From Clostridia bacterium (GTDB lineage: Bacteria; Bacillota; Clostridia; Christensenellales; Aristaeellaceae), in NCBI GenBank assembly GCA_017524615.1, contig JAFXVJ010000050.1, forward strand, positions 25,133 to 89,132: a DNA stretch of 64,000 nucleotides. The letters are read 5' to 3'. This document shows positions 9,901 through 23,066 of this stretch, piece after piece. Numbering within the stretch: the first letter of the stretch is position 1; the number at the start of each line of letters is the position of its first letter. Made by a program: the position numbers and the translations under genes. The notes beneath the pieces are model-generated. The model made no database searches and was not told where the DNA came from. It was given only the letters and a program-made list of their open reading frames with translations.

Positions 9901-10263
9901 TTATGATTCCTCCGTTTCCGGCTGCTCCATGCCCGCCCGCAGCATCTCAATGGCGCGTTTTTCCATGCGGGAAACGTAACTGCGGCTGATCCCAAGCACC
10001 TCCGCCACCTCATGCTGGGCGTGAACGGCGCCGTCCAGCAGGCCGTAGCGCATTTCGATCACCAGCCGCTCCTTCTTGGGCAGGCCTTTCACCAGCTTTC
10101 GCACCCGCCCCAGGGTCACACGCCGCACGGCCTCATCCTCTACGTGACCCGGTTCCGTGCCCAGGATATCCAGGAAACTCAGCTCGTTGCCTTCCCCATC
10201 CGTGCCGATGGGATCCGACAGGCTCACGTCCCCCTTCCGCTTCCGGGATGCCCGCAGCAGCAT
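9901..10263 (-). CDS. sigK: RNA polymerase sigma-K factor, C-terminal half of split gene
   Basis: Encodes SigK regions 3-4: SLSDPIGTDGEGNELSFLDIL, then LPKKERLVIEMRYGLLDG and the -35-binding helix-turn-helix EVAEVLGISRSYVSRMEKRAIEML. The annotated ATG is an internal Met of the complete protein; the sigK frame continues upstream as AAT GAA ATC CTG (Asn-Glu-Ile-Leu) into the recombination core at 10272-10276. There is no promoter or ribosome site, so this half is silent until the 12.4-kb insert is removed. Sigma-K drives late mother-cell gene expression in sporulation. It corresponds to Bacillus subtilis spoIIIC. Confidence 0.93.
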   Translation of the reverse strand: MLLRASRKRKGDVSLSDPIGTDGEGNELSFLDILGTEPGHVEDEAVRRVTLGRVRKLVKGLPKKERLVIEMRYGLLDGAVHAQHEVAEVLGISRSYVSRMEKRAIEMLRAGMEQPETEES

Positions 10264-10283
10264 CAGGATTTCATTTGCTATCC
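10264..10283 (-). other. skin attachment site next to sigK C-terminal half
   Basis: On the minus strand GGATAGC-AAATG-AAATCCTG: element arm GGATAGC, core AAATG (10272-10276), then sigK codons. The core also supplies the TGA stop of the recombinase (10271-10273), so sigK and recombinase share these bases. Confidence 0.85.
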
Positions 10284-12079
10284 TCGCCCCAAGGCGCCGC
10301 AGGGGTTGTCAGGGCGTCTGACCCCTCGTTTTCGCCGTAAACCACGTCCAGATAGGGCTCCAAATCGCCGTTTTCGTCCTCTTCCGCGGGGTTTTCCATC
10401 CACTTACGCAACCCTTCGGGATATTGGATTTCATCATCTCCCGCCCCGAAGAGGATCACATGGGCGTTTTCCCCATCCCAGATCACCCGGCGGATCACTG
10501 TTTTGAGGGCGGCCCGCTGCTGCTCAATGGACATATCCGCAAGCCCGTCCTTGAACGCCGCCAGCATGTCCCGCAGCAGATCGAATTCGCTGTCCGTCAA
10601 TTCCTGCCGGTTCAGCAGGCTCGCCAGTTCCTGGATTCGTTGATCCAGGGCTTTGCTTTCCCGGTTCAGTTCGTCCAGACGCTTTGCCACCAGTTCTTTG
10701 GTGTCTCCGGCCGCCATCCCCGCCAGCGCGTCCACCAGGCCGCTGATTTTTTTGTCGGTTTCGGCCTTTTCCTGCTGCAAGGCGGCTTTCTGCTTTTCAT
10801 ATTCGACCCTGTCGCCGGTGAAAAAGCCCCGGCTGCGGGACAGCTGGGCCATGAATTCCCCCGCGTTCTCGTCGATGTGCCGGATGCGGTCCACGATCAT
10901 GGCGTCCAGGATGTTGCCGTTCACGTTTTTGTTGTTGCACAGCGCCTTCTGGCTGCGCTCCTTGAGCTTGCAGACGTAGGTATAGACGGGCTTGCCCTCC
11001 GGAGTCAGGCGCTTGGTGAGTTTGGGGTACATCCGGTTGCCGCACTTGCAGAACAGGAAACCGGTCAAAAGCGCCTCGTTGCTCCGGGGGCGGCGGTAAG
11101 CCTTGGATTTGTTCTGCTCCAGCGCCTCCTGCGCCCGCACCCACGTTTTTCCCGGGATCAGCCCGGGATGCTGCCCCACCGCCACGATCCAATCGCTCAC
11201 CGGCAGGAACACCGTGGCCCGGCCCTTTTCCTGGTCGGTGCGGTTGTAGGCCATCACGCCCCGCGCCCCGTCAAAATCCGCTTCCTCCGCGAACACGTCT
11301 GCGCCGTGGGCGGTGAAATACCGGTACATGTCCCCGTCTGCAATGGCGTAAACGGGATTGAGTAAGATTCCCTTGATGGAAAAGCGGGTGTGGTACTTGC
11401 CGTTCTTGCTGACGATGCGCCGCTGCATCAGTTCCGCTTCCGTTTTCGTCAGGGAGTTGGTTTCGCCGAACAGCTGATAGATCAGCTTCACCGTCTCCGC
11501 CTCCTCCGGGATCGGCTTCAGCCGGCAGGCCTTTTTCTTTTTCCCGTCCACGGTGACGGTCTGCACGCTTTCGGAAGCGTAGCCCGTGGGCGTGACGCCC
11601 CCCAGCCACCGGCCCGTCTTCGCCAGTTCCCGCATGTTGTCCCGGATGCGCTCGGCGATGGTTTCCCGCTCCAACTGGGAAAACACCGATGCAATATACA
11701 TCATGGCCCGGCCCATGGGCTGGCTGGTGTCGAACCGCTCCCGGATGGAAACGAAATCCACCTTCAGCCGCCCCAGCTCCTCGATCAGCCCCGCAAAATC
11801 GCTGATGTTGCGGCTGATCCGGTCCAGCCGGTACACGATCACCGCGCTGTGCTTCTTATTCTTCACCGCCTTCATCATTTCCTTGAAGGCCGGCCGGTTC
11901 AGGTTGCCGCCGGAAAACCCCTCGTCCTCATACACCACGGCTTTTTCCGCCGCGTCCTCCCCATCGTTCATCCGAATGTACGCCCGGCACAGCTCGATCT
12001 GGTTCCCGATGCTCTCTCCTTTGCCGGTGAATCTGGATTTCCGGGAATATATGGCGACGGTCTGCTCGTTTCCTTTCAC
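10271..12079 (-). CDS. spoIVCA: Large serine recombinase (SpoIVCA-type skin excisionase)
   Basis: Site-specific recombinase expected to excise the skin element during sporulation. The resolvase domain begins almost at the N-terminus with TVAIYSRKSRFTGKGESIGNQ, the catalytic Ser being in YSRKS; RLDRISRN and SQLERETIAERIRDNM are also resolvase motifs. The Recombinase domain follows (GGVTPTGYAS, NPVYAIADGD), then a zinc beta-ribbon (FLFCKCGNRMYP with downstream Cys) and a C-terminal coiled coil rich in Lys/Glu/Gln. I prefer the GTG at 12079 because GGGGAAG lies 8 bases upstream and the domain starts there; an ATG at 12142 extends it by 21 residues without a ribosome site. The stop overlaps the recombination core. 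The gene lies beside the sigK C-terminal half and is co-oriented with sigK. Confidence 0.92.
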   Translation of the reverse strand: MKGNEQTVAIYSRKSRFTGKGESIGNQIELCRAYIRMNDGEDAAEKAVVYEDEGFSGGNLNRPAFKEMMKAVKNKKHSAVIVYRLDRISRNISDFAGLIEELGRLKVDFVSIRERFDTSQPMGRAMMYIASVFSQLERETIAERIRDNMRELAKTGRWLGGVTPTGYASESVQTVTVDGKKKKACRLKPIPEEAETVKLIYQLFGETNSLTKTEAELMQRRIVSKNGKYHTRFSIKGILLNPVYAIADGDMYRYFTAHGADVFAEEADFDGARGVMAYNRTDQEKGRATVFLPVSDWIVAVGQHPGLIPGKTWVRAQEALEQNKSKAYRRPRSNEALLTGFLFCKCGNRMYPKLTKRLTPEGKPVYTYVCKLKERSQKALCNNKNVNGNILDAMIVDRIRHIDENAGEFMAQLSRSRGFFTGDRVEYEKQKAALQQEKAETDKKISGLVDALAGMAAGDTKELVAKRLDELNRESKALDQRIQELASLLNRQELTDSEFDLLRDMLAAFKDGLADMSIEQQRAALKTVIRRVIWDGENAHVILFGAGDDEIQYPEGLRKWMENPAEEDENGDLEPYLDVVYGENEGSDALTTPAAPWGEDSK

Positions 12080-12155
12080 TTTTCTCACTTCCCCGATTGA
12101 TGCCGTGCGATATACTTTCGACTTTATATTATCGAAGAGCATTTCATTTGATAAC

Positions 12156-12201
12156 TTAAAAACCCGCTTTCATTACTGAAATCTCAGCATTTGAAAGCGG
12201 G
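12156..12201 (-). terminator. Rho-independent terminator, minus strand
   Basis: CCCGCTTTCA (12163-12172) pairs perfectly with TGAAAGCGGG (12192-12201); on the minus strand the stem is followed by TTTTTAAG. It separates the recombinase gene from the upstream minus-strand genes, implying the recombinase has its own promoter between 12080 and 12160. Confidence 0.75.
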
Positions 12202-12275
12202 ATATTGATCAAGGCTTTGCGATTTATTTCACTTGGCTGGTATTGAATGTCCGTAGAACGATGATCATCGGCTTC

Positions 12276-12530
12276 TCACAGGCCCATCTTGGCCATGATC
12301 CCGTCCGCGGTAACGCCGGGATGGGTCACGTACAGCCGGGCGATCTGTTCCGCCCATTCCTTATCGTTGTTTCCCCGCACCGCCTGGACCGGCGCAATCT
12401 CCTCCAGCCGGTCCAGGATCTTCCGGCTGCTCACGTCCCCGCCGTGGAGAATGAAATCGCAGCCCGAAAGCCGGTTCAGCACTTCCGGGCGCAGCAGATC
12501 GTGGGTGTCGGATAAAACTGCGATTTTCAT
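12276..12530 (-). pseudogene. Truncated YfcE-type metallophosphoesterase
   Basis: Begins as a YfcE/MJ0936-family phosphodiesterase: MKIAVLSDTHDLLRP (metal-binding DTH), ILHGGDVSS (GDV) and AVRGNND (GNND). The family is normally about 155-180 residues; this one ends at 84, before the C-terminal histidine motifs needed to complete the metal centre, with an unrelated-looking tail (VTHPGVTADGIMAKMGL). Most likely a deletion remnant in the skin element, not an active enzyme. Confidence 0.7.
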
Positions 12531-12577
12531 TGCTTCGTTTCCCTGCTCTTTTTCTTGGTTATTCTATGCGCGCCTGC

Positions 12578-13777
12578 TCATATCCGATATGCTGTCTGCC
12601 CGCAATGATTCAGCTTCGCCAGCCGCCCCACCGCACCATCCAGCGCGTGGGCCAGCTTCTTCGTCTGCCGCACGCCGCTTTCATACCACACGTTCCTGAC
12701 CATGAGCGCGCCCGCTTTCCGATCTGCGGCGGCTTCGATCCTGCCAACAAATTGATCGCCATAAAGCATGGGCAGCACATAGTATCCATACTTCCGCTTT
12801 TCCGCGGGGGTATAGATTTCCCAGGAATACTGATAACCCCAAACGGCCTCGATCAGCTTCCGATCCCACAGCATGGGATCCAGCGGGGCCAAAAACTCGA
12901 GCCGCGGTTTCCTGTCGATATCGTCGGCGAGAACGGCCTCCATCAGCGGCTGATCCTCGCTCAGCAAATACAAAGGAGATCGAATGCCCTCCGCCAGCAC
13001 GGGCAGGATTTCTCCCGCGTGCAGCAGCGTGTCAAACGCCTGCTCGCGCTCATCGGTATTCATATCAATGCCCAGCCAGGCGTCGGAGCGCCGATCCCAC
13101 AAGAGCCCCACGGCGCCGATGCGCCGCTTCACGCGCCACTGCCGGAAGGAGGCCGCATCCGGGCAGGGATTTGGCGCATTCAGAAGCGCCGGGCTGAAAT
13201 ACCGGTCCGCCAGATCGTAAAATTTCCGGGACCCGCTTTTGTGATGGATCAGCAGCACGCCGTCCGTATACAACTGCTCCAGCACCGAACGGGCCGCCGG
13301 GGACTGGCCGTGCCAGTTGCCGCTCCAGTGCATGGAGGAATGCCAGAAAACCTTTCCTTCGATGGGCAAAGAATCGCTGCTGACAGGGCCGTTTTCCCGG
13401 ATGTAAGCGATGGCCTGCTCTTCCAATTCCGGGATGTCCGGAAAGGACGCGCCGTGGGCTTTGCTCCTTTCCCGATAGCCGGCAAAGTACGGCCAATCCT
13501 CCCGGGGCCAGATGGACAATTCCTTGTCGCTGTAATCCACCAGCAGGCGATCCTGGTACAGAAGATCGGCCAGCATCTGCTTGGAAAAGCCCTTCACCCG
13601 GGACTGCAAGGTCAATTCCGCGTTTTTGCCGCATACGTCCACGGGATCATACTGAATGCAGCCCGCCTGACGGACATACCGGTACGCGCCGTCTTTTCCG
13701 GCAAAGCGATGCTTCCCCAGCAAACCCTGCTTGCTGAGCATGAACCGCCTGGCCTGTTCCTTCGTGATCGTCATCAT
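12578..13777 (-). CDS. AlkX/YcaQ-type winged-helix DNA glycosylase
   Basis: 399 residues, HTH_42 superfamily (winged-helix DNA-binding, YcaQ-like). The N-terminal region carries IQYDPVDVCGKNAELTLQSR; the QYD tripeptide matches the catalytic Gln-X-Asp motif described for AlkX (E. coli YcaQ), and conserved VFWHSSMHW and WDRKLIEAVWGYQYSWEIYTP blocks follow. Such enzymes unhook DNA interstrand crosslinks or remove bulky alkylated bases. It sits inside the skin element, so the mother cell would lose it on excision. An alternative ATG three bases later (13774) is equally possible. Function is inferred from family. Confidence 0.8.
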   Translation of the reverse strand: MMTITKEQARRFMLSKQGLLGKHRFAGKDGAYRYVRQAGCIQYDPVDVCGKNAELTLQSRVKGFSKQMLADLLYQDRLLVDYSDKELSIWPREDWPYFAGYRERSKAHGASFPDIPELEEQAIAYIRENGPVSSDSLPIEGKVFWHSSMHWSGNWHGQSPAARSVLEQLYTDGVLLIHHKSGSRKFYDLADRYFSPALLNAPNPCPDAASFRQWRVKRRIGAVGLLWDRRSDAWLGIDMNTDEREQAFDTLLHAGEILPVLAEGIRSPLYLLSEDQPLMEAVLADDIDRKPRLEFLAPLDPMLWDRKLIEAVWGYQYSWEIYTPAEKRKYGYYVLPMLYGDQFVGRIEAAADRKAGALMVRNVWYESGVRQTKKLAHALDGAVGRLAKLNHCGQTAYRI

Positions 13778-14049
13778 ATTTCCGTGCCCTTCGTTCCTTT
13801 CGCAGCTTTGCCCCGGATCAAGTATATCATATGAAAACCGAAATGAACAGAAGCTTGATCATTGATTATTTATACCAATTATTTCATGATGGATGAAACG
13901 AAAAGCCAACGTCCATCCCCGAAGAATCAAAGGAAAGGAGAAATACGGTAAGGTGCCTTACAAACGCCAGGCAGCAGCCGTCAGCCGAATCGGCAGGCAT
14001 ATCTTTGCTGGCCGGCCACATACATTTCCGTAGGAAGGAGGCGCTGCCT

Positions 14050-14259
14050 ATCCCCAAACCGAACCCCGTCAACATCATCGTTCACTATCCGAAAACCGCG
14101 GAAGGCCGGCGCATCCTGACCCGGCGCATGGCCGGCGTACATGCCGACTGGGTCTGCGATAAGCTGAAAAAAATGAACTGCCCCGCGGATCAGAAAGTGC
14201 AATTATTGAACGCCGTGGTGGATACGGCCAAAAGAAAAACGCGGGATCAGGCCCGGTAA
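14050..14259 (+). CDS. Small skin-borne protein of unknown function with atypical start
   Basis: About 69 residues starting PKPNPVNIIVHYPKTAEG and ending in a Lys/Arg-rich helix. GGAAGGAGG (14033-14041) is an excellent ribosome site, but 8 bases downstream the codon is ATC, not ATG; an upstream in-frame TTG at 14005 has no ribosome site. A tiny ORF (GTG at about 13952, 26 codons, AAAGGAG before it) ends immediately before the ribosome site, so translation could be coupled. It resembles small proteins I associate with clostridial mobile elements, but I cannot name the family. The gene may be dead through start-codon loss. The stop codon lies in the loop of a hairpin (14243-14270). Confidence 0.45.
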   Translation: MPKPNPVNIIVHYPKTAEGRRILTRRMAGVHADWVCDKLKKMNCPADQKVQLLNAVVDTAKRKTRDQAR

Positions 14260-14270
14260 CGCCTGATCCC

Positions 14271-14596
14271 CGCCCGGCGGGCGTCGATGGACGATTGCAG
14301 GTTTTTTCGTATGTTGCTGGTGCTGATAAGCCTATTTGAACAGGCATATTCCGGTCCTCCTTTGTCCGGAATGCGATTGGATGCAGCGCGCTTCATCTGC
14401 GTGCTTTATACCAAAAGAGAGCATAAGGGACAATCTGTATTATTATTATAATTTATGCAAGTATATATAAAGCAATTTTTCATATAAGTACTTTTCTATG
14501 AAATGCTGGCTCCGCCTGCCTTTCAGTCGCAATTCAGCGTGAGCAGAATTACGAGCAAAAGACCAGGAAAAAAACAATCCCCTTCGCGTTCCAATA
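14271..14596. other. Intergenic region without a supported gene
   Basis: Open frames on both strands here lack family features. One minus-strand frame starting at 14347 has GGAGG upstream but overlaps the small ORF antisense. AT-rich from about 14420 to 14510. Confidence 0.5.
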
Positions 14597-14624
14597 TTGA
14601 CAGGACCGGCGGGCGTAATATAAT
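14597..14624 (+). promoter_or_regulatory. Sigma-A type promoter of the lysine-riboswitch operon
   Basis: Consensus TTGACA (14597-14602), 16-base spacer, consensus TATAAT (14619-14624). This is a vegetative promoter inside the skin element, so the downstream operon is expected to be active in growing cells, independent of sporulation sigma factors. Confidence 0.88.
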
Positions 14625-14633
14625 AAAGATGTT

Positions 14634-14822
14634 CGGACAACCCGAACGGAATAGAGGCGCGGCATGCATCAGTACCGCAGGCTGTTCTGCCGGAGTGTAA
14701 GCCCAGGCGAAAGGGCTTGCCGCCGAAACGCGGCCCCCGTGGCGGGAGGGCGCGTTGGGACGACGGAAAAAGATCCCGCGTACTGTCATGCCCGGCCATG
14801 AAGCGCTATTCCCGGTTGTTTC
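14634..14822 (+). ncRNA. Lysine riboswitch (L box)
   Basis: Conserved landmarks appear in the right order: ATAGAGGCGCGG (14651 on), CAGTACC, GCCGCCGAAACG (about 14719-14730), GTTGGGA, ACTGTCAT (about 14782-14789) and the short CATG...CATG hairpin. The closing P1 stem is formed by GACAACC...GGAATAG with CTATTCC...GGTTGT. These match the B. subtilis lysC leader and RF00168-type sequences as I remember them. Such RNAs repress lysine biosynthesis or uptake genes when lysine binds. Confidence 0.85.
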
Positions 14823-14833
14823 TGCAGATTCAA

Positions 14834-14876
14834 GCGGAGAATGACGTAAAGCGATTCTTCGCTTTTCTTTTTTCTT
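14834..14876 (+). terminator. Riboswitch expression-platform terminator
   Basis: GCGGAGAAT (14834-14842) pairs with ATTCTTCGC (14854-14862), one G-T pair, followed by TTTTCTTTTTTCTT. It sits between the lysine aptamer and the first gene, as expected for transcriptional attenuation by lysine. Confidence 0.8.
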
Positions 14877-14901
14877 CCGCATTTCTTCCAGGAGCGCGCA
14901 A

Positions 14902-15579
14902 GTGAGTGTAAAGATTGCCATTCCGATCCCGCCCCAGGACCGGTATCCCAACTATTTTTCGGCGCTGAGTGCCTTGGGGGCGGAAGGGATCAAGGCCTCG
15001 GCGGAGGCTGATCCTTCCGACTTCGACGGCCTGCTGCTCCCCGGCGGGGGCGATATATGCCCGGCCTATTACCGCCAGGAAACGGCCGGGGCCGCGGACA
15101 TGGATCCGGCCCTGGACGCGCTGCAGTTTGCGGTGGTCGACCGGTTTTTCAAGGCGGGGAAAATGATCTTCGGCATCTGCCGGGGGCATCAATTGCTGAA
15201 CGTGTACTTTGGGGGCACCCTGATCCAGGATCTGCAAAACGGGAAAATGCACGACTGGGAGCAGGGCTTCTCCATGGACAAGGTCCACATGACGGAGGCC
15301 CTGCCCGGCTCCTGGATAGCGGGCATTTACGGCCTTCGCTTCCCCACCAACAGCGCCCATCACCAGGCCGTGGACCAGCTGGGCAAGGGCCTGACCGCGG
15401 ACATGTATGCCCCAGACGGGATCATCGAGGCGGCGCATCATGAGAGCGGCCGGGTTTTCAGCGTGCAGTGGCACCCGGAAAGGATGTGCTTTGACCACCG
15501 GCGGGAGGACACCGTGGACGGAAGCAAAGTGATCCGTTGGTTTCTGGACAGGTGCCTGAGCGCAAAATGCCCCGGATGA
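14902..15579 (+). CDS. Class C26 gamma-glutamyl hydrolase (PuuD-like)
   Basis: Glutamine-amidotransferase-like hydrolase, 225 residues. Nucleophile elbow MIFGICRGHQLLNVYFGG with the catalytic Cys, TNSAHHQAVDQLG, and FSVQWHPER providing His and Glu of the triad; LLLPGGGDICPAYY is the oxyanion region. The nearest familiar members cleave gamma-glutamyl amide bonds (gamma-glutamyl-GABA). The GTG start is supported by AGGAG 7 bases upstream. As first gene behind a lysine riboswitch and ahead of an Opp transporter, it may release lysine (or diaminopimelate) from an imported gamma-glutamyl peptide; this substrate is inference. Confidence 0.88.
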   Translation: MSVKIAIPIPPQDRYPNYFSALSALGAEGIKASAEADPSDFDGLLLPGGGDICPAYYRQETAGAADMDPALDALQFAVVDRFFKAGKMIFGICRGHQLLNVYFGGTLIQDLQNGKMHDWEQGFSMDKVHMTEALPGSWIAGIYGLRFPTNSAHHQAVDQLGKGLTADMYAPDGIIEAAHHESGRVFSVQWHPERMCFDHRREDTVDGSKVIRWFLDRCLSAKCPG

Positions 15580-15664
15580 AGCAGCGGGAGGGGCAGGCTC
15601 CCTTTCTTTCTCTTTGAATCCACCATGGCGGGGCCGCCATGGAAAAATAGAAGGAGTGAAACGA

Positions 15665-17608
15665 ATGAAAAGGTTGATCCGCATGATGTCTCTGGCGCTG
15701 GCGCTGTGCCTGGCCCTGACTGGCGCGGCCGTGCCCGCTTTCGCTGAGGACGCTTCCGCGAAGGCCCAGGCGATCCTGGACGGCAAGGAATACGCCACCG
15801 TCTATAAGAGCTATTTCTCCACCTCCTATCCCTCCCTCAATTACTTCTGCACCTCCTATGCCACGGTGCGCGAGTTCGCCACCAACTGCGTGGACAGCCT
15901 GGTGGAGCCGGACATTTACGGCAATTACACCGGCGCCCTGGCGGAGAGCTGGGATGTGAACGACGATTACACCGTGTGGACCTTCCATATCCGCAAGGGT
16001 CAGAAGTGGATCGACCATACCGGCGCCCAGACGGAATACGACCTGACCGCCCAGGACTTCGTGGACGGCATCCGCTACATCGGCGACCCCCAGAACGATG
16101 CCTATTCCCTGCGCGTGATCCGCAACCTGATCACCGGCCTGTATGATTACTACTGGGGCCTGGATGACATTGACTGCGGCGATGACACGGAAACCAACAG
16201 GGACGACCTGGTGGCCCGGTTCGATGAGATCGTGGGCGTGAAGGCCCTGGACGAATACACCGTCCAGTATACCCTGGACAATAGCGCGCCCTATTTCCTC
16301 TCCCTGGTGGAAAGCAGCATGCTGCTCCTGCCCGTGGAATACGATTACGTGGTCGCCCAGGGCGATGACTTCGCCGTGGACAACACCCACATGCTCTACT
16401 GCGGCCCCTATTACGTGTCCGCCTTCGAGCGCGACAAGAAGATCGTGCTCACCAAGAACCCCTATTACTGGGATCTGGACAAAATCACTGTGGACACCAT
16501 CGAATATCAGATGATCCCGGACGGCACCACTTCCCTTGAAATGTTCATCCGGGGCGAACTGGATTACACCTCCGTGGAATCCGAAGCCTTCATGTCCCTC
16601 CAGGGGAGCGAATGGGAAAAGTACCTGATCCCCAACGAGTTCTCCTTCAGCACCAACTATCTGTGGCTGGACTTCCAGGGCGCGAATCCCGAGTTCAACA
16701 CTTTCATCCAGAACGTGAACTTCCGCCGGGCCCTGCGCGCCGCTGTGGACCGGGAATCCCTGGCCTCCCTGCGGGAGCCCATGCAGCCCTCCCGCCTGGT
16801 GCGCAATACCGTGAACGCCGAGGGCGCGATCTTCAATTCCCAGGGCGTTGATTACACCCAGATCCCCCCGCTGGATGAAATCGCCAACGCGGATTACAGC
16901 GCCGATGAAAACGCCGCCCGGGCCTATATGGAGGCCGCTGTGGCAGAACTGTGCGATCCGGACGGCACCATCAAGGGCGTGGAAGCGGGCACGGTGGATT
17001 ATCTGCCCGTGATCAAGACCGATGTGGACGGCAAGCTGCCCGTCACCCTGATTTACGTGGGCACCAACGATGAGAGCGAAATCATCCTGGCCCAGCTGTT
17101 TGAGGCCATGGTGGAGGAAGCCATCGGCACGGATTATATCGACGTGGTGCTGGCCTTTGACACCAGCGACGATTTCTATGGCACCGTGGGCGGCAGCGTG
17201 AAGGGCCCGTTCAACTACGATATCTATTGGGATTCCCTGTCCACCGGCTACGCCGATCCCTCCGGCATTCTGACCCGCATCACCTCCGACGGGGTAGAGA
17301 ACGTGGGCTGCTACAGCGTGCCCGAATTTGACGCGCTGATCGAAAAGGCACTCAACGCCCCCACCTTCGACGAGCGGCTGCAATTCTTCGCCCAGGCGGA
17401 AGCGTACCTGCTGGACAACGCTTTCATGATCCCGGTGATTTCTTCCCTCCGCGGCTATCATATGACCTATGACGTGCCCCATACCGCCCCCAGGGCGCTC
17501 TACGGCAGCGACCGCTACAAGGGCTTGAAGGTGGCCACGACGCCCATCACCCTGGAAGAATACCAGATCCTGGACGCGGCCTGGGAAAGCCAGAGAAACG
17601 CGAAATAA
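15665..17608 (+). CDS. oppA: Oligopeptide ABC transporter substrate-binding protein
   Basis: SBP_bac_5 family, 647 residues. The signal peptide (MKRLIRMMSLALALCLALTG followed by AAVPAFA) fits signal peptidase I cleavage; there is no lipobox Cys, unusual for a Gram-positive binding protein, so it may be released or retained otherwise. Family features: ESWDVNDDYTVWTFHIRKGQKWID, YCGPYYVSAFERDKKIVLTK, and FNYDIYWDSLSTGYADPSG. Start chosen at 15665 because AAGGAG precedes it; an in-frame ATG at 15614 has no ribosome site. Binds peptides outside the membrane and delivers them to OppBC. Confidence 0.93.
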   Translation: MKRLIRMMSLALALCLALTGAAVPAFAEDASAKAQAILDGKEYATVYKSYFSTSYPSLNYFCTSYATVREFATNCVDSLVEPDIYGNYTGALAESWDVNDDYTVWTFHIRKGQKWIDHTGAQTEYDLTAQDFVDGIRYIGDPQNDAYSLRVIRNLITGLYDYYWGLDDIDCGDDTETNRDDLVARFDEIVGVKALDEYTVQYTLDNSAPYFLSLVESSMLLLPVEYDYVVAQGDDFAVDNTHMLYCGPYYVSAFERDKKIVLTKNPYYWDLDKITVDTIEYQMIPDGTTSLEMFIRGELDYTSVESEAFMSLQGSEWEKYLIPNEFSFSTNYLWLDFQGANPEFNTFIQNVNFRRALRAAVDRESLASLREPMQPSRLVRNTVNAEGAIFNSQGVDYTQIPPLDEIANADYSADENAARAYMEAAVAELCDPDGTIKGVEAGTVDYLPVIKTDVDGKLPVTLIYVGTNDESEIILAQLFEAMVEEAIGTDYIDVVLAFDTSDDFYGTVGGSVKGPFNYDIYWDSLSTGYADPSGILTRITSDGVENVGCYSVPEFDALIEKALNAPTFDERLQFFAQAEAYLLDNAFMIPVISSLRGYHMTYDVPHTAPRALYGSDRYKGLKVATTPITLEEYQILDAAWESQRNAK

Positions 17609-17619
17609 CCAAACGGCGC

Positions 17620-17658
17620 AGGCTCCGGCTGTTTCAGCGGCCGGAGCCTTTCTCTTCT
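17620..17658 (+). terminator. Intra-operon hairpin between oppA and oppB
   Basis: AGGCTCCGG (17620-17628) pairs perfectly with CCGGAGCCT (17641-17649), then TTCTCTTCTG. A leaky terminator here would give more binding protein than membrane components, a common arrangement in ABC operons. Confidence 0.65.
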
Positions 17659-17679
17659 GTTTGCCCGGGATAAGCGCCA

Positions 17680-18645
17680 ATGGCGGAAAGGGGCCTGGCA
17701 AGGAACATGGCAAAGTATATTCTGCGGCGCCTGCTGCGCTCCGCGGTCACGCTGATCATCGTGTTCACGGCGGTGTTCATGCTGCTTCGGTTTATGCCGC
17801 TCAACGGTTATTTCCCCCAGGAAATGATCAAGGAAACGGACGAGGCCACGCGGATGGCGTACCTGAGGAATTTAGGGCTGCTGGACCATCCATTCGTGCA
17901 GCTGTGGCGGTTCGTGCGAAGCCTTTTGCACGGGGATCTGGGGCGCAGCATCACGGTATATCCCAAGGTGCCCATCAGCACCCTGATGGCGGAAAAAATC
18001 CCCACCACCGCGTTCCTGGGGTTCTTCAGCATGCTGCTTGGCATCGTGGCGGGCCTTTCCATGGGCATGATGATGGTGCGGCGGAAAAACAAGCTGGGAG
18101 ACAGCCTGGGCAACGGGTATATCCTGCTGGTCCGGGCGGTGCCCAGCCTGATTTATCTGTTTTTCCTCCAGATCTGGGTGTCCCGCTGGCTGAATCTGCC
18201 CCTGGTTTACGACAAGGACATTCCCAAATCCTGGATCCTGCCCATCGTCTGCCTGTCCCTGTCCAGCGTGGCCTGGTACGCCTTGTGGATACGCCGGTTC
18301 ATGGTGGACGAGGAAAACCAGGATTACGTGAAGTTCGCCTTCGTCAAGGGCCTGTCCCGGAAGGCCGTGCTGCGAAAGCATATTTTCCGCAACGCCGTGA
18401 TCCCCATCACGGCTTACCTGCCCGCCGACCTGCTCAACATCGTGGCGGGCTCCCTGATCATTGAAACGCTCTACGCCATTCCCGGCACCGGCGGCCTGCT
18501 CACCACCGCCATTAAACGGCAGGACAACAACCTGGTGCAGGTGCTGGTGCTCATGTACGCCGCGTTGTCCATCCTGGGGGTGTTCCTGGGGGATCTGCTG
18601 CTGGCGTTCGTGGACCCGCGGATCAAGCTGACGGAGGAAAAATGA
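17680..18645 (+). CDS. oppB: Oligopeptide ABC transporter permease OppB
   Basis: Inner-membrane permease with the binding-protein-dependent transport domain. N-terminal TM in MAKYILRRLLRSAVTLIIVF, followed by a long loop and about five further membrane helices. The cytoplasmic EAA-type loop (FVKGLSRKAVLRKHIFRNA) contacts the ATPase; GSLIIETLYAIPGTGGLL is typical of OppB/DppB. The start could be 17680 or an internal ATG at 17707; neither ribosome site is strong. The stop overlaps the start of oppC by 4 bases. Confidence 0.93.
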   Translation: MAERGLARNMAKYILRRLLRSAVTLIIVFTAVFMLLRFMPLNGYFPQEMIKETDEATRMAYLRNLGLLDHPFVQLWRFVRSLLHGDLGRSITVYPKVPISTLMAEKIPTTAFLGFFSMLLGIVAGLSMGMMMVRRKNKLGDSLGNGYILLVRAVPSLIYLFFLQIWVSRWLNLPLVYDKDIPKSWILPIVCLSLSSVAWYALWIRRFMVDEENQDYVKFAFVKGLSRKAVLRKHIFRNAVIPITAYLPADLLNIVAGSLIIETLYAIPGTGGLLTTAIKRQDNNLVQVLVLMYAALSILGVFLGDLLLAFVDPRIKLTEEK

Positions 18646-19589
18646 TGCAGAGCACCATTAAAACCATTGCCCGGGCCCACGACCCGGCCCTGTTTACCCG
18701 GGCGGATTTCGACCAGGCGGAAAGCGAAAGGATCGGCGTGTCCAATTATTCCTACTGGCGCTCCACCCTGCGTACCTTTTTCCGCTCCAAGCTGGTGATC
18801 CTGCTGGTGGCGCTGATGGCGGCCATCCTGCTCATGAGCTTTCTGTATCCCATGATTTCCAGGATCGACCCCACCAAGGTGTCCACCAGGTCCCGCAACT
18901 GGAACCTGCGCCCCTCCTGGGAGCATCCCTTCGGCACGGATACCCTGGGCAGGGACATTTTCGCCCGGGCCTGGTACGGCTGCCGCAATTCCTTCCTGCT
19001 GGCCTTCTGCATCGCCCTGTCGGACGTGGGCATCGGCATGATCGCCGGCGCCGTGTGGGGCTATAACCGGAAGCTGGACCCCTTCATGATCGAATTGTAC
19101 AACATCATGACCAACATCCCCTCCACCGTTTATCTGGTGCTGCTTGCCTATATCATGAACACCAGCTACCTGACCCTGTTCATTTCCATGGCTTCCCGCG
19201 GCTGGATCGTGGAGGCGCGGTTTTTCCGCAACCGCATCCTGTCCATCCGGGACGCGGAATACAACATCGCTTCCCGGTGCCTGGGCACGCCCATGCTCCG
19301 CATCGCCACCAGGAACATCATTCCCCAGATCATCAGCCTGATCATCATGGAAGCGGCCCTGTGCATCCCCTATTCCATCGGCTCCGAGGTATTCCTGGGA
19401 TTCGTGGGGGTGGGCATGCCCGTGGACGCCATTACCCTGGGCAATATGGTCAACCAGGGCCGGGCGTCCTTTACCCTGCATCCCTATCAGATGCTGCTGC
19501 CCACGGCGGTGCTGTGCCTGATCACCGTGGCCTTTTACATCATCGGCAACCGCTTCGCCGACGCGTCCGACCCCAGGAATCATCTGTAA
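18642..19589 (+). CDS. oppC: Oligopeptide ABC transporter permease OppC
   Basis: Second permease, 315 residues. A cytoplasmic N-terminus precedes TM1 (LVILLVALMAAILLMSFLYP). HPFGTDTLGRDIFARAWYGC is the OppC/DppC hallmark, and the coupling loop reads EYNIASRCLGTPMLRIATRN. Starts ATGATG, overlapping the oppB stop (ATGA), so the two permeases are translationally coupled. Confidence 0.94.
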   Translation: MMQSTIKTIARAHDPALFTRADFDQAESERIGVSNYSYWRSTLRTFFRSKLVILLVALMAAILLMSFLYPMISRIDPTKVSTRSRNWNLRPSWEHPFGTDTLGRDIFARAWYGCRNSFLLAFCIALSDVGIGMIAGAVWGYNRKLDPFMIELYNIMTNIPSTVYLVLLAYIMNTSYLTLFISMASRGWIVEARFFRNRILSIRDAEYNIASRCLGTPMLRIATRNIIPQIISLIIMEAALCIPYSIGSEVFLGFVGVGMPVDAITLGNMVNQGRASFTLHPYQMLLPTAVLCLITVAFYIIGNRFADASDPRNHL

Positions 19590-19604
19590 ACGGAGGATGG
19601 AAGA

Positions 19605-21599
19605 ATGAACGAGCATAAAGGCCCTCTGCTTCTGTCCGCCAAGGACGTGGTGATCAAATTCAACCTCCGGGGCCAGGAGCTGACCGCCATCCGCGGGGCG
19701 TCCCTGGACGTGTACCAGGGGGAAACCGTGGCCATCGTGGGAGAATCCGGGTCCGGGAAATCCGTGTTCACCAAGTCCTTCATCGGCATGCTGGACCAGA
19801 ACGGCCGGGTGGAGAGCGGCTCCCTGCTTTTCCACGGGGAGGACATGACGAAATACAGCGCCGAGGCTCAATGGCTGAAGGTGCGGGGCAAAAAAATCGC
19901 CATGGTGTTTCAGGACCCCATGACCAGCCTGAACCCGGTGCGGGTGATCGGTGAGCAGATCGCCGAGGTGATCATGTGGCATTTCCATAAATCCCATGAC
20001 GAGGCGAAAAAAGAAACCGTGGAGCTGCTGCGAAAGGTGGGCATCGAGGACCCGGAGCAGCGCTACCGCCAGTATCCGGGAGAGTTTTCCGGCGGCATGC
20101 GGCAGCGGGCGGTCATCGCCTGCGCCATCGCCTGCCGGCCGGAGATCCTGATCTGCGACGAGCCCACCACCGCCCTGGACGTGACCGTGCAGGCCCAGGT
20201 GCTGAATCTGATCAAGGATCTCCAGCGGGAAATGAAAATGAGCGTGGTCTTTATCACCCACGATCTGGGCGTGGTGGCCAACGTGGCGGACTGGGTGGCG
20301 GTGATGTACGCGGGGAAGATCATCGAGTATGGGGAAGCGGGGGAGATTTTTCACCAGCCGGAGCACCCCTATACCAAAGCCCTCCTTCGCTCCCTGCCCC
20401 AATTGGGGGTGAAGGGCCACGACCTGTACGCCATTCAGGGCACCCCGCCCAGCCTGTTCAAGGAAATCCGGGGCGACGCCTTCGCCCCCCGGAACATGGA
20501 CGCCATGAAAATCGATTTTGAGGAGGAGCCCCCGGCCTTTTCCGTGTCTCCCACCCATTGGGCGAAAACCTGGCTGCTGGCCCCGGAGGCGGAAGCGTAC
20601 CGGCAGGATCTTGCCCGCCGGGACGCGGAAGCGTCCTCCGCCCAGACCCCCTCCGCGCCTTTTGATTACGGGAAGGCGGAGCCCCTTCTGTCTGTGAAGA
20701 ACCTTTCCGTGCATTTTAAGCTGGGCTCTTCCCGGGTCAAGGCGGTGGACGGCGTTTCTTTCGATATTTATAAAGGGGAGACCCTGTCCCTGGTGGGGGA
20801 ATCCGGCTCCGGAAAAACCACCATCGGCAGGGCCGTGATGAGCATTTACAGCGGCAATGTGGAGGGCGGCATCTATTTCAAGGGCCGGAAGATCAATCAG
20901 AAGCTGAGCAAAAAAGACCGGGGAAAGCTGCGCATGGAAATGCAGATGATCTTCCAGGACCCCATGGCCTCCCTCAACGACCGGGCCAAGGTGGATTACA
21001 TCATTTCCGAGGGCCTGTACAATTTCCATTTGTTTGAGAACGAAGGGGACCGCCTGGCCAAGGTGGAAAAAATGCTCCGGGAAGTGGGGCTGACCAGCGA
21101 TTTCATGACCCGCTTCCCCCATGAGTTTTCCGGCGGGCAGCGGCAGCGCATCGGCATCGCCCGCAGCCTGATCATGAATCCCGATTTCGTGGTGGCGGAC
21201 GAGCCGATCTCCGCCCTGGATGTATCCATCCGCGCCCAGGTGATCAATCTGCTCAACCGGCTCAAGCAGGAAAGGGGCCTCACCTATCTGTTCATCGCCC
21301 ACGATCTGTCCGCCGTCCGCTTTATTTCGGACCGGATCGCCGTCATTTACCGGGGGCGGCTGGTGGAATTGGCGGCCTGCGAGGAGCTGTTTTCCCGGCC
21401 CCTTCATCCCTATACCAAGGCCCTCCTTTCCGCCGCGCCCTATCCGGACCCCGACGTGGAAAAAAACAAGGTGATCCATATCTACCGTCCCGAAGCCGGG
21501 GATGCGGCTACCGCCCGGGAATGGATCGAAGCCTTTCCCTTTCATTTCGTGCTGGCCACCCGGGAAGAAGCGGAGGAGTACCGGCGTGAAAACAACTGA
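19605..21599 (+). CDS. oppDF: Fused OppD-OppF ATPase
   Basis: A single 664-residue chain containing two complete ABC ATPase domains. Domain 1 (about 8-300): Walker A GESGSGKS at 46-53, signature FSGGMRQR, Walker B ILICDEPTTALDV, C-terminal HPYTKALLRSLP peptide-transporter extension. Domain 2 (about 350-640): second GESGSGKT near 398, signature FSGGQRQR, Walker B VVADEPISALDV, HPYTKALLSAAP. A linker of about 50 residues joins them. Separate OppD and OppF subunits are the norm, so the fusion fixes a heterodimeric engine. Ribosome site GGAGG lies before the ATG. Confidence 0.95.
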   Translation: MNEHKGPLLLSAKDVVIKFNLRGQELTAIRGASLDVYQGETVAIVGESGSGKSVFTKSFIGMLDQNGRVESGSLLFHGEDMTKYSAEAQWLKVRGKKIAMVFQDPMTSLNPVRVIGEQIAEVIMWHFHKSHDEAKKETVELLRKVGIEDPEQRYRQYPGEFSGGMRQRAVIACAIACRPEILICDEPTTALDVTVQAQVLNLIKDLQREMKMSVVFITHDLGVVANVADWVAVMYAGKIIEYGEAGEIFHQPEHPYTKALLRSLPQLGVKGHDLYAIQGTPPSLFKEIRGDAFAPRNMDAMKIDFEEEPPAFSVSPTHWAKTWLLAPEAEAYRQDLARRDAEASSAQTPSAPFDYGKAEPLLSVKNLSVHFKLGSSRVKAVDGVSFDIYKGETLSLVGESGSGKTTIGRAVMSIYSGNVEGGIYFKGRKINQKLSKKDRGKLRMEMQMIFQDPMASLNDRAKVDYIISEGLYNFHLFENEGDRLAKVEKMLREVGLTSDFMTRFPHEFSGGQRQRIGIARSLIMNPDFVVADEPISALDVSIRAQVINLLNRLKQERGLTYLFIAHDLSAVRFISDRIAVIYRGRLVELAACEELFSRPLHPYTKALLSAAPYPDPDVEKNKVIHIYRPEAGDAATAREWIEAFPFHFVLATREEAEEYRRENN

Positions 21600-22023
21600 T
21601 CTGTGGAAAAACAAAAAATGGCGGCTGCTGATTTTTCACCGGGCCATGGTGCTTTTTTCCCTGGCCCTGGTTTTCAGCGCTCTGGCCGCGGGGCTGTATC
21701 AAAGCCGGGTGTATTTCTCCTTCGGCGCCTGCGCCGCCGGGGCGCTGCTTTGGGCCAAGGCCTGGCTGGATTTTTGCCGCTGGCGGGACGGAAAGCCCCT
21801 GGAACGGACCCGGGAAAAAACGCCCTATATGCTCCGGGCGCGGAAGAAGAAAACCGTTCATAAGCCGGCGTTTCTCATGAACGCCTCGGATTTTGATGAC
21901 GACCTGACCCCCTGGACCGCCCTGGGCGAGGAAACGCTCCCCCGGCGCGCCCAGGAGCTTTCCTCCGTCCTCGCCTGCGTCTTTGCCGGGGCGGCGGCCT
22001 TGCTTGCGTCCCTGATTCCGTGA
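21586..22023 (+). CDS. Small membrane protein at the end of the opp operon
   Basis: 145 residues starting at a GTG (21586) that overlaps the oppDF stop; GCGGAGGAG lies upstream. Two N-terminal membrane helices (AMVLFSLALVFSALAAGLYQ and FSFGACAAGALLWAKAWL), a basic/acidic middle with PYMLRARKKK and DFDDDLTPW, then a C-terminal helix (ACVFAGAAALLASLI). Not recognised. Its position suggests an accessory role in the transporter. Confidence 0.75.
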   Translation: MKTTDLWKNKKWRLLIFHRAMVLFSLALVFSALAAGLYQSRVYFSFGACAAGALLWAKAWLDFCRWRDGKPLERTREKTPYMLRARKKKTVHKPAFLMNASDFDDDLTPWTALGEETLPRRAQELSSVLACVFAGAAALLASLIP

Positions 22024-22039
22024 TTCTTTGCGCACAAAG

Positions 22040-22351
22040 ATATAAAAGCCTTCCACATCTGAACAGCTTTTCCATATAGCCCTGCTTCATCGTCACAGTT
22101 CTTGCCACTTCGATCGAATCATCCCGAACGCGGCAAAAATCCTTGTAAGCTTTGAAATTGATAGAATAATACCCCGTAAACAGGCCGCGTTGATACAGCA
22201 GAATCCCGGAAAGCGGGAACTCTTTTTTTTTTCGGGGATGGCATCGGCAAATTCATTTACGATCATAACTGCCGGAGGCTTCCCATACGCCGTCCCATAC
22301 GGCGTTCATGTCCCGCAGCGTTTCGGGCGCATAACGAATCTTATAGGTCAT
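22040..22351 (-). pseudogene. Decayed ParE/RelE-type toxin
   Basis: Reading the minus strand from an ATG at 22351 gives MTYKIRYAPETLRDMNAVWD, a ParE/RelE superfamily start, then SYD followed by a stop caused by a frameshift. The match resumes in another frame (NEFADAI) and, after a run of A residues, in a third (EFPLSGILLYQRGLFTGYY, then FCRVRDDSIEVAR). At least two frameshifts make it non-functional. No antitoxin was recognised upstream. The B. subtilis skin also carries a toxin-antitoxin pair, so a remnant here is in keeping. Confidence 0.65.
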
Positions 22352-22643
22352 TTTCTTTCATTCTTCTTCTTTTTCCTCCATGGCATATACTATGGATGCA
22401 TCCTTCATGCAACGGTTTTCCGACAAATTCATCGAAAGTTTTAGGGGCTTATTCCAAGCCCTTCCATCGTTTATCTTCGCAGCGGTCACCCGGAAGGAGA
22501 GGATAGAAAGGGGCTTAAGCCTCACGCAAGTTCCCTCTGAGCGGCACATGATATACATTTTGTCGGAATACCGGGCGCAAACGTGCCAGATATTGGAAGA
22601 AAAGCGGCTTTGATCCGCGTATGACGCGCCGGCGATGGGATAG
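22352..22643. other. Non-coding or decayed sequence at the inner right end of skin
   Basis: Frames on both strands look incoherent; the minus-strand read-through of the sigK N-terminal half (to 22522) has no similarity to sigma factors after the core. A degraded antitoxin partner of the ParE remnant could lie here, but I see no recognisable motif. Confidence 0.4.
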
Positions 22644-22974
22644 CATTTTCAATGCACCGGGCGGCATAGGAGGAAAGCTGCGTGCCGCTGTCCGGCTTGA
22701 AGGTGTTCACGGCCTTCACCAGCCCCAGGGATCCTACCGATACCAAATCGTCGGCTGTAAAGCCGGGCACCGTGTATTTCCTCGCGATATGGGACACCAG
22801 GCGCAGGTTGTGCTCGATCAGTTTTCGCCGGGCGCTGTCGTCGCCGGCCTGCATGGCGGCGATGGTTTTTTGTTCCTCCTCCCGGGTGAGCGGACGGGGA
22901 AATGAACCGCGGCCCGACAGCAGCCCGAAGAAAAACAGTGCGTCCTTGAAAAGCCAATACAAAAACGACAGCAT
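22522..22974 (-). CDS. sigK: RNA polymerase sigma-K factor, N-terminal half of split gene
   Basis: Residues 1-110 (22974-22645) are SigK: hydrophobic pro-sequence MLSFLYWLFKDALFFFGLLS, then the region 2 core with IEHNLRLVSHIARKY, DDLVSVGSLGLVKAVNTF and SYAARCIEN. After the core at 22644-22648 the frame enters skin DNA and continues with 40 unrelated residues to 22522. Perfect ribosome site GGAGGTGA 6 bases upstream; CATAGAAT at 23002-22995 resembles a sigma-E -10 box but no clear -35 is visible. Corresponds to B. subtilis spoIVCB. After excision the product is 233 residues. The hydrophobic N-terminus suggests proteolytic activation (SpoIVFB-type), unlike Clostridioides difficile SigK, which lacks it. 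Confidence 0.93.
   Translation of the reverse strand: MLSFLYWLFKDALFFFGLLSGRGSFPRPLTREEEQKTIAAMQAGDDSARRKLIEHNLRLVSHIARKYTVPGFTADDLVSVGSLGLVKAVNTFKPDSGTQLSSYAARCIENAIPSPARHTRIKAAFLPISGTFAPGIPTKCISCAAQRELA
22637..22656 (-). other. skin attachment site next to sigK N-terminal half
   Basis: On the minus strand TGCATTGA-AAATG-CTATCCC: sigK codons, the core AAATG (22648-22644), then the element arm CTATCCC. The arm is the inverse of GGATAGC at the other end, so the excised circle would carry GGATAGC-AAAT-GCTATCC, a near-perfect palindrome. Confidence 0.85.
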
Positions 22975-23066
22975 CTGAAATCACCTCCGGGCCTATTCTA
23001 TGCGCGCCGGCGGGCGTTCCTGTCAGCCTTCAAAACCGCGTCCGGGGAGCAGTTTCCATTTTTTTG

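What the first reader, a model, noticed from the sequence alone, without database searches (positions are those of the whole stretch)
9901..22974. sigK is split by a 12,372-bp skin element
Two co-oriented half genes share a 5-bp core; joining them gives an in-frame 233-residue sigma-K through CIENEIL, the same point used in B. subtilis. A serine recombinase ends inside one core. The organism is therefore predicted to regulate late sporulation by programmed DNA excision.
Basis: partly seen in the sequence, partly recalled or inferred. Interest (0 to 1): 0.85.

Follow-up and report, generated by a model that had tools for sequence, protein, structure and literature searches.

The report
sigK gene split by excisable element
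A gene needed late in spore formation is cut in two by a 12-kb element that carries its own cutting enzyme and a small partner protein that looks switched on only during sporulation; the same kind of element sits in this gene in many gut bacteria.

Summary
Two co-oriented sigK halves lie 12,372 bp apart at an AAATG core; joined they read as a 233-aa SigK. No second intact sigK was found in this 81.6%-complete genome. The recombinase occurs in 4 of 29 genus genomes, the same four in which both sigK halves were found, with shared junctions. On a sigK tree they are not one clade (AU p 1.3e-6): a recurrently gained or lost mobile element. New here: (i) in 71 of the 80 best recombinase relatives (of 413 found) a SigK-like half gene lies within 200 bases of the recombinase end; (ii) a ~70-aa protein with no family match above cut-off shares 9 of its 10 genomes with the close recombinase among 308. 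In the window it lies behind a sigma-E-like promoter and seems to start at ATC. I propose it is the recombination directionality factor, as CD1234 is in C. difficile. Here the element also holds a 7-kb block with an oligopeptide-transport operon that relatives carry outside sigK. Excision itself is inferred, not observed.

The parts
22648..22974 (-). sigK 5' half (hydrophobic N terminus to CIE); the ORF runs on inside the element to a stop at 22522
   Evidence: (TIGR02846 132 bits)
22992..23002 (-). CATAGAATAGG, sigma-E/sigma-K-like -10 element of sigK, 28 nt before the start
   Evidence: CATA at 25-31 nt in 18 of 22 sigK upstream rows (two of the other four rows look wrongly anchored)
22638..22654 (-). 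attL: CATTGAAAATGCTATCC; AA exchange dinucleotide inferred at 22647-22646
10266..10282 (-). attR: GATAGCAAATGAAATCC; AA exchange dinucleotide inferred at 10275-10274
9901..10275 (-). sigK 3' half, in frame from the AAT codon at the core to the stop
   Evidence: (NF004471 124 bits)
10271..12088 (-). large serine recombinase; probable GTG start at 12088 (longest ORF to 12142); stop codon overlaps attR
   Evidence: Resolvase 4.8e-36, Recombinase 7.1e-15, zinc ribbon 3.2e-10; integrase phrog_95 379 bits
13998..14026 (+). sigma-E-like promoter of the small gene: ATA, 17 nt, CATACATT
14050..14259 (+). candidate recombination directionality factor, 69 aa, start codon apparently ATC, ribosome site GGAGG at 14037-14041
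12276..12530 (-). YfcE-like phosphodiesterase of only 84 aa, apparently shortened inside compared with a 218-aa relative in G009
12578..13777 (-). AlkZ-like DNA glycosylase
   Evidence: 3e-50
14902..22023 (+). block shared with loci outside sigK: peptidase C26, OppA, OppB, OppC, fused OppDF and a 173-aa ORF
   Evidence: collinear in G013 and G026
22358..22645 (-). 95-codon frame that would continue the recombinase in the excised circle; HTH part not present here beyond a short remnant

Best explanation
The window holds a skin-type integrative element in sigK. Shown by sequence: two sigK halves with conserved att junctions, a large serine recombinase ending in attR, and a ~70-aa companion found almost only with this recombinase. 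Inferred: the recombinase joins attL and attR at an AA dinucleotide, releasing a 12,372-bp circle and restoring sigK. The companion acts as the recombination directionality factor (RDF), made in the mother cell from a sigma-E-like promoter (in many relatives with a SpoIIID-like box) and started at a weak ATC codon, so excision waits for sporulation and the spore chromosome keeps the element. The element is mobile in origin; relatives in G009 and G015 carry a MobA/MobL relaxase. In this genome no match to that relaxase was found in the element, and the element holds an oligopeptide-transport block of the kind found elsewhere in congeners.
For: The recombinase (E 1e-20 or better) is in 4 of 29 genus genomes, the same four that have both sigK halves, and in none of the 19 with a near-full-length sigK. 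Junctions are shared; sizes 12,372, 7,897 and 25,585 bp in the three with both ends on one contig. Pairwise sigK dN/dS is 0.13-0.28 in 8 pairs with at least one split copy and 0.17-0.32 in 3 intact pairs. In 71 of 80 recombinase loci a SigK-like half gene lies within 200 bases of the recombinase end. The small protein is in 10 of 308 family genomes, the close recombinase (61% or more) in 10, both in 9 (Fisher p 1.6e-15, genomes not independent); it is in all 15 loci in which a co-oriented N half and the recombinase were both within reach. ATA-N15-18-CATANNNT stands upstream of it in 15 of 32 copies against a base-shuffle mean of 0.14 (max 2, 500 shuffles) and 2 of 160 nearby windows. Recombinase promoters in G009 and G015 look sigma-A-like by eye, TTTACA-N17-TATTAT. 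This is the C. difficile logic: constitutive CD1231, sigma-E/SpoIIID-controlled 72-aa RDF CD1234 (PMC5025042, abstract and passages). mfd lies tail to tail with the C half here and with intact sigK in G017.
Against: No reads or cultures were examined. Pairwise dN/dS covers time before the insertion, so it cannot show constraint since then. The small protein has no Pfam match above cut-off and none in NCBIfam or PHROGs; its profile found no convincing solved chain. Its role rests on co-occurrence and promoter; the 32 copies are related, the shuffle kept base content only, and the loose SpoIIID-like count (21 of 32) has no control. The window copy lacks a clear SpoIIID-like box and the region before its recombinase is less promoter-like. 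G202 has recombinase and C half but no small protein, and also an intact sigK; G277 has the small protein without the recombinase. L151 has an inverted N half beside the recombinase and no small-protein match. Loci in Gemmiger and Faecalibacterium (recalled as non-spore-formers) suggest such elements do not need sporulation. The structure prediction did not finish.
Confidence: 0.8

Rival explanations
1. A mobile element has simply inactivated sigK; it no longer excises and the lineage has lost late sporulation.
For: The element is gained or lost repeatedly; here no relaxase match was found, one gene is shortened and the region before the recombinase is less promoter-like; related elements occur in Gemmiger and Faecalibacterium. 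A recent insertion would leave open halves without function.
Against: Both sigK halves are open, with pairwise dN/dS like intact pairs (which includes time before insertion); the recombinase is open over its length and 73-81% identical to the other three; Spo0A is present.
Confidence: 0.13
2. Assembly chimera or mis-binned contig.
For: It is a draft of 59 contigs; G202 and G203 give near-identical matches on different contigs, perhaps cross-contamination.
Against: The same junction sequences in four genomes and the mfd-sigK neighbourhood kept.
Confidence: 0.02
3. The small protein is not the RDF but a mobilisation or regulatory protein; the RDF is another gene (for instance the HTH protein) or none is needed.
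For: In G009 and G015 the small gene lies beside the relaxase; the HTH protein sits just inside attL in several elements.
Against: The small protein is in 15 of 15 loci with the co-oriented N half and recombinase, 14 of them without a match to the G015 relaxase; the HTH protein matches only 6 of 80 loci and is a short remnant in the window.
Confidence: 0.2

Closest known systems
skinCd of Clostridioides difficile (CD1231 recombinase, CD1234 RDF)
   Same: sigK interrupted; recombinase directly upstream of the 3' half; sigma-A-like recombinase promoter (seen in two congeners) and a ~70-aa companion with a sigma-E-like promoter (PMC5025042, abstract and passages)
   Different: SigK here has a hydrophobic N terminus like a pro-sequence (by eye; C. 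difficile SigK has none); the small protein is basic in 26 of 32 copies (window pI 10.3) while CD1234 has pI 5.5; homology to CD1234 not tested; insertion point not compared
skinBs of Bacillus subtilis (SpoIVCA)
   Same: sigK interrupted, short core, serine recombinase in the element (passages)
   Different: 48-kb phage-like element with the recombinase beside the 5' half in the opposite direction (PMC10745906, passages); here beside the 3' half, co-directional, and no phage genes among the proteins scanned
Island IV of Bacillus cereus biovar anthracis
   Same: non-phage element in sigK with its own recombinase
   Different: 22 kb, recombinase beside the 5' half in the opposite direction (PMC10745906, abstract and passages)
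Integrative mobilisable elements with MobA/MobL relaxases
   Same: congener elements in G009 and G015 carry MobA/MobL
   Different: no match to that relaxase in the window; target is sigK

Membership tests
skin (sigK-intervening) element | interrupts sigK so that precise joining restores the frame | tested here: met
skin (sigK-intervening) element | encodes its own serine recombinase next to an att site | tested here: met
skin (sigK-intervening) element | no other intact sigK in the genome | tested here: met
   genome 81.6% complete, so a missed copy is possible
skin (sigK-intervening) element | excised in the mother cell during sporulation | not testable with these tools
   needs sporulating cells or reads; promoter evidence only
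large serine recombinase | resolvase, recombinase and zinc-ribbon domains | tested here: met
   TP901-1 integrase, YokA (SprA, name recalled) and phiC31 integrase chains matched
recombination directionality factor | small protein required for attL x attR recombination | not testable with these tools
   size and co-occurrence fit; activity needs an assay
recombination directionality factor | sequence similarity to an RDF in a solved structure (not a strict criterion) | tested here: not met
   profile A2 gave no convincing chain; RDFs are said to share no significant similarity (PMC5025042)
prophage | phage structural or replication genes in the element | tested here: not met
   eight proteins wholly inside the element scanned with Pfam and NCBIfam and two more short ORFs with Pfam gave none; not every ORF was scanned
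integrative mobilisable element | relaxase in the element | tested here: not met
   MobA/MobL in G009 and G015, no match to it in the window; other relaxase families not searched

The most novel reading that the evidence does not exclude
The recombination event rewires the recombinase itself. In the chromosome the recombinase ends at a stop codon donated by sigK; in the excised circle its frame would run on, open, through attP into an extension that in the other three genus elements is 201-206 codons long and holds a helix-turn-helix protein. Integrated and circular forms would then make two different proteins, a short one for excision and an HTH-fused one for the circle. In the window the HTH part is gone, leaving 95 codons.
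Probability: 0.15. Interest if true: 0.8.

Novelty: new variant of a known kind. Interest (0 to 1): 0.7.

Why it matters
A 2016 paper calls skin elements an exception in clostridia (PMC5025042, passage). The loci found here suggest that one recombinase family repeatedly enters sigK across records named Lachnospiraceae, Oscillospiraceae, Christensenellaceae and even Erysipelotrichaceae, with a dedicated small protein wired to what looks like the mother-cell programme. That would make sporulation-linked excision a general way for mobile elements to live in a developmental gene, and it supplies att sites, recombinases and RDF candidates to test. It also warns that a sigK split in draft genomes of gut bacteria may be wrongly scored as lost.

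Tried and rejected
Attachment-site search: the inferred 18-base attP hit three viral contigs; none shows a related recombinase and at least two look like terminators by eye, so chance. Recombinase searches of phages and plasmids at E 1e-60 gave only matches below 50% identity (1 and 6 records). The small protein had no match in plasmids, nor a relative of it from L205 in phages. The small-protein profile had no convincing solved structure; Mediator hits at E 0.14 and above were dismissed. The five-base core as exchange site was narrowed to AA. A prophage reading was dropped for lack of phage genes among the proteins scanned. The codon-position test of the circle frame was only mildly in favour: differences at positions 1, 2, 3 were 220, 203, 331 for codons 32-60 and 198, 267, 314 for codons 9-31. 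Against that idea: 7 of 15 distinct attL sites have a circle extension of 50 codons or fewer. In G018 the C half starts exactly at the core at a contig end, which could mean mixed forms in the sample, but one case proves nothing.
Full report
Observation. On the minus strand the window has the 5' part of sigK at 22974-22648 and the 3' part at 10275-9901, 12,372 bp apart at an AAATG core. Joined they give 233 aa. NCBIfam places both halves best in SigK. In its own genome (2.55 Mb, 59 contigs, 81.6% complete) the two halves are the best matches; the next, 43% identical, looks like the sigma-E paralogue (the paralogue name is my reading).

The genus. Of 29 genomes, 19 have a near-full-length sigK at 70-85% identity, four have two separate halves (G000, G009, G011, G015; in G011 on two contigs), G018 has one half, G025 and G019 have short parts, and G007, G008 and G012 have only the paralogues. 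The recombinase occurs in G000, G009, G011 and G015 alone. Both junctions are identical over 17 and 30 bases in the four. The elements share their ends and the recombinase at DNA level, while most of the interior differs. A tree of sigK itself (21 rows) needs at least 4 changes between split and intact, and a single split clade is rejected (p 1.3e-6); G009 (split) is sister to G024 (intact) with full support. Pairwise dN/dS is 0.13-0.28 in 8 pairs with a split copy and 0.17-0.32 in 3 intact pairs; this includes time before insertion. In G017 the intact sigK lies tail to tail with mfd, as the C half does here. So the element comes and goes while sigK stays open, which fits a gene that can be restored.

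Beyond the genus. In 308 genomes of the family the recombinase matches 14 at E 1e-80 or better; ten at 61% identity or more and four at 34-43%. Of the six close ones in other genera (four in g41, two in g47), five have a sigK C half beside the recombinase. A scan of named genomes found 413 relatives and kept the best 80. In 71 of 80 a SigK-like half gene lies within 200 bases of the recombinase end (one of these, L151, is an inverted N half). With an att-motif criterion, 71 of 80 again have an in-frame C half (not the identical set). Five targets were scanned and all five had SigK as best family, at 82-142 bits; the other targets were judged by tblastn only. By record name, 23 of 80 are Lachnospiraceae, 17 Oscillospiraceae and 2 Erysipelotrichaceae. 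Of 72 attR-like sites tallied, 49 read GATAGCAAATGA and 14 GATAGCAAACGA; with GATAATGC at attL in L120, L133, L140 and L163 this leaves AA as the shared dinucleotide, flanked in the inferred attP by 8-base arms, GGATAGCA-AA-TGCTATCC. This fits a large serine recombinase (general knowledge of the family).

A candidate directionality factor. A ~70-aa protein is encoded in the four genus genomes with the element and in none of the other 25. In the family its profile hits 10 of 308 genomes; nine of these also hold the close recombinase (10 of 308), and none of the four distant-recombinase genomes has it. The exceptions are G202 (recombinase only) and G277 (small protein only). It matches in 31 of the 80 loci, and in all 15 in which both a co-oriented N half and the recombinase were within reach. 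Thirty-two copies align, with P14, A32 and K49 invariant. No family in the libraries matched it above a cut-off (only the window copy and one or two others were scanned). Upstream there is ATA-N15-18-CATANNNT in 15 of 32 copies (base shuffles 0.14 on average, 2 at most; 2 of 160 nearby windows), and SpoIIID-like ACA boxes in 21 of 32 by a loose pattern without a control. The window copy has ATA-N17-CATACATT but no clear box. The start column is ATC or ATT in 21 of 32, ATG in 9, GTG in 1, TTG in 1 (in three shortened rows the column was extrapolated, and in many rows an in-frame GTG overlaps the ribosome site). In the window no in-frame ATG, GTG or TTG lies between the promoter and the ATC at 14050, eight bases after GGAGG. 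A weak ATC start would keep expression low; this is inference.

Mechanism. In C. difficile the recombinase CD1231 is constitutive, the 72-aa CD1234 is made under sigma-E and SpoIIID, and both are needed for excision (PMC5025042, abstract and passages). The window shows a like layout by sequence: recombinase before the 3' half, sigma-A-like promoters before the recombinase in the congeners G009 and G015 (by eye), small partner under a sigma-E-like promoter. sigK itself has a CATAGAATA element. I therefore infer mother-cell excision, with the element kept in the spore line. Spo0A is present and a SpoIIID-like protein scores just under its cut-off.

Cargo. The element interior from 14902 to about 22023 is collinear with loci in G013 (85% over 6.2 kb) and G026 (83%) on contigs other than those with their sigK. 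OppA is found in 5 of 29 genus genomes at E 1e-100 or better, the window's included. Thus an oligopeptide-transport block entered the element, or the reverse; direction is not shown. No match to the G015 relaxase was found here.

Circle frame. The recombinase stop is the TGA of AAATGA. In the circle it would read AAA TGC and stay open for 95 codons here and 201-206 in G009, G011 and G015, where the extension holds an HTH protein (HTH_3 by Pfam in G015, homologous in the other two). Of 15 distinct attL sites, 8 have 93 or more open codons and 7 have 50 or fewer. The long ones are homologous; indels within about the first 55 codons are multiples of three, after which the window and L133 leave the common frame; third positions vary most, but weakly. 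This is the boldest reading and is unproven.

Literature. Searches listed known sigK elements of Bacillus, Clostridium and Alicyclobacillus but no paper that I could recognise as describing this family; the lists were capped and subscription journals are mostly missing. The large recombinase survey PMC10083194 (listing only) may contain such recombinases.

Noticed in passing
window 14902-22023: Oligopeptide-transport block inside the element, collinear with loci outside sigK in G013 and G026.
   Followed up: partly
window 12276-12530: YfcE-like phosphodiesterase of 84 aa, apparently shortened; a 218-aa relative lies upstream of the sigK N half in G009.
   Followed up: no
L205 6956-11982: Viral-collection contig with a 44% recombinase and a sigK N half in opposite orientation ending at the same CIENA junction, plus a distant small-protein relative.
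   Followed up: partly
L065 (G018) contig end: Contig begins exactly at the AAATG core of the sigK C half; may reflect mixed excised and integrated DNA.
   Followed up: no
L031 and L054 (G028): Two different near-full-length sigK genes in one genome.
   Followed up: no
L122, L142, L177, L180, L182: sigK-like half genes with this recombinase in Gemmiger and Faecalibacterium, recalled as non-spore-formers.
   Followed up: no
window 22300-22360: Fragment resembling the start of a RelE/ParE-type toxin beside the left end, judged by eye.
   Followed up: no
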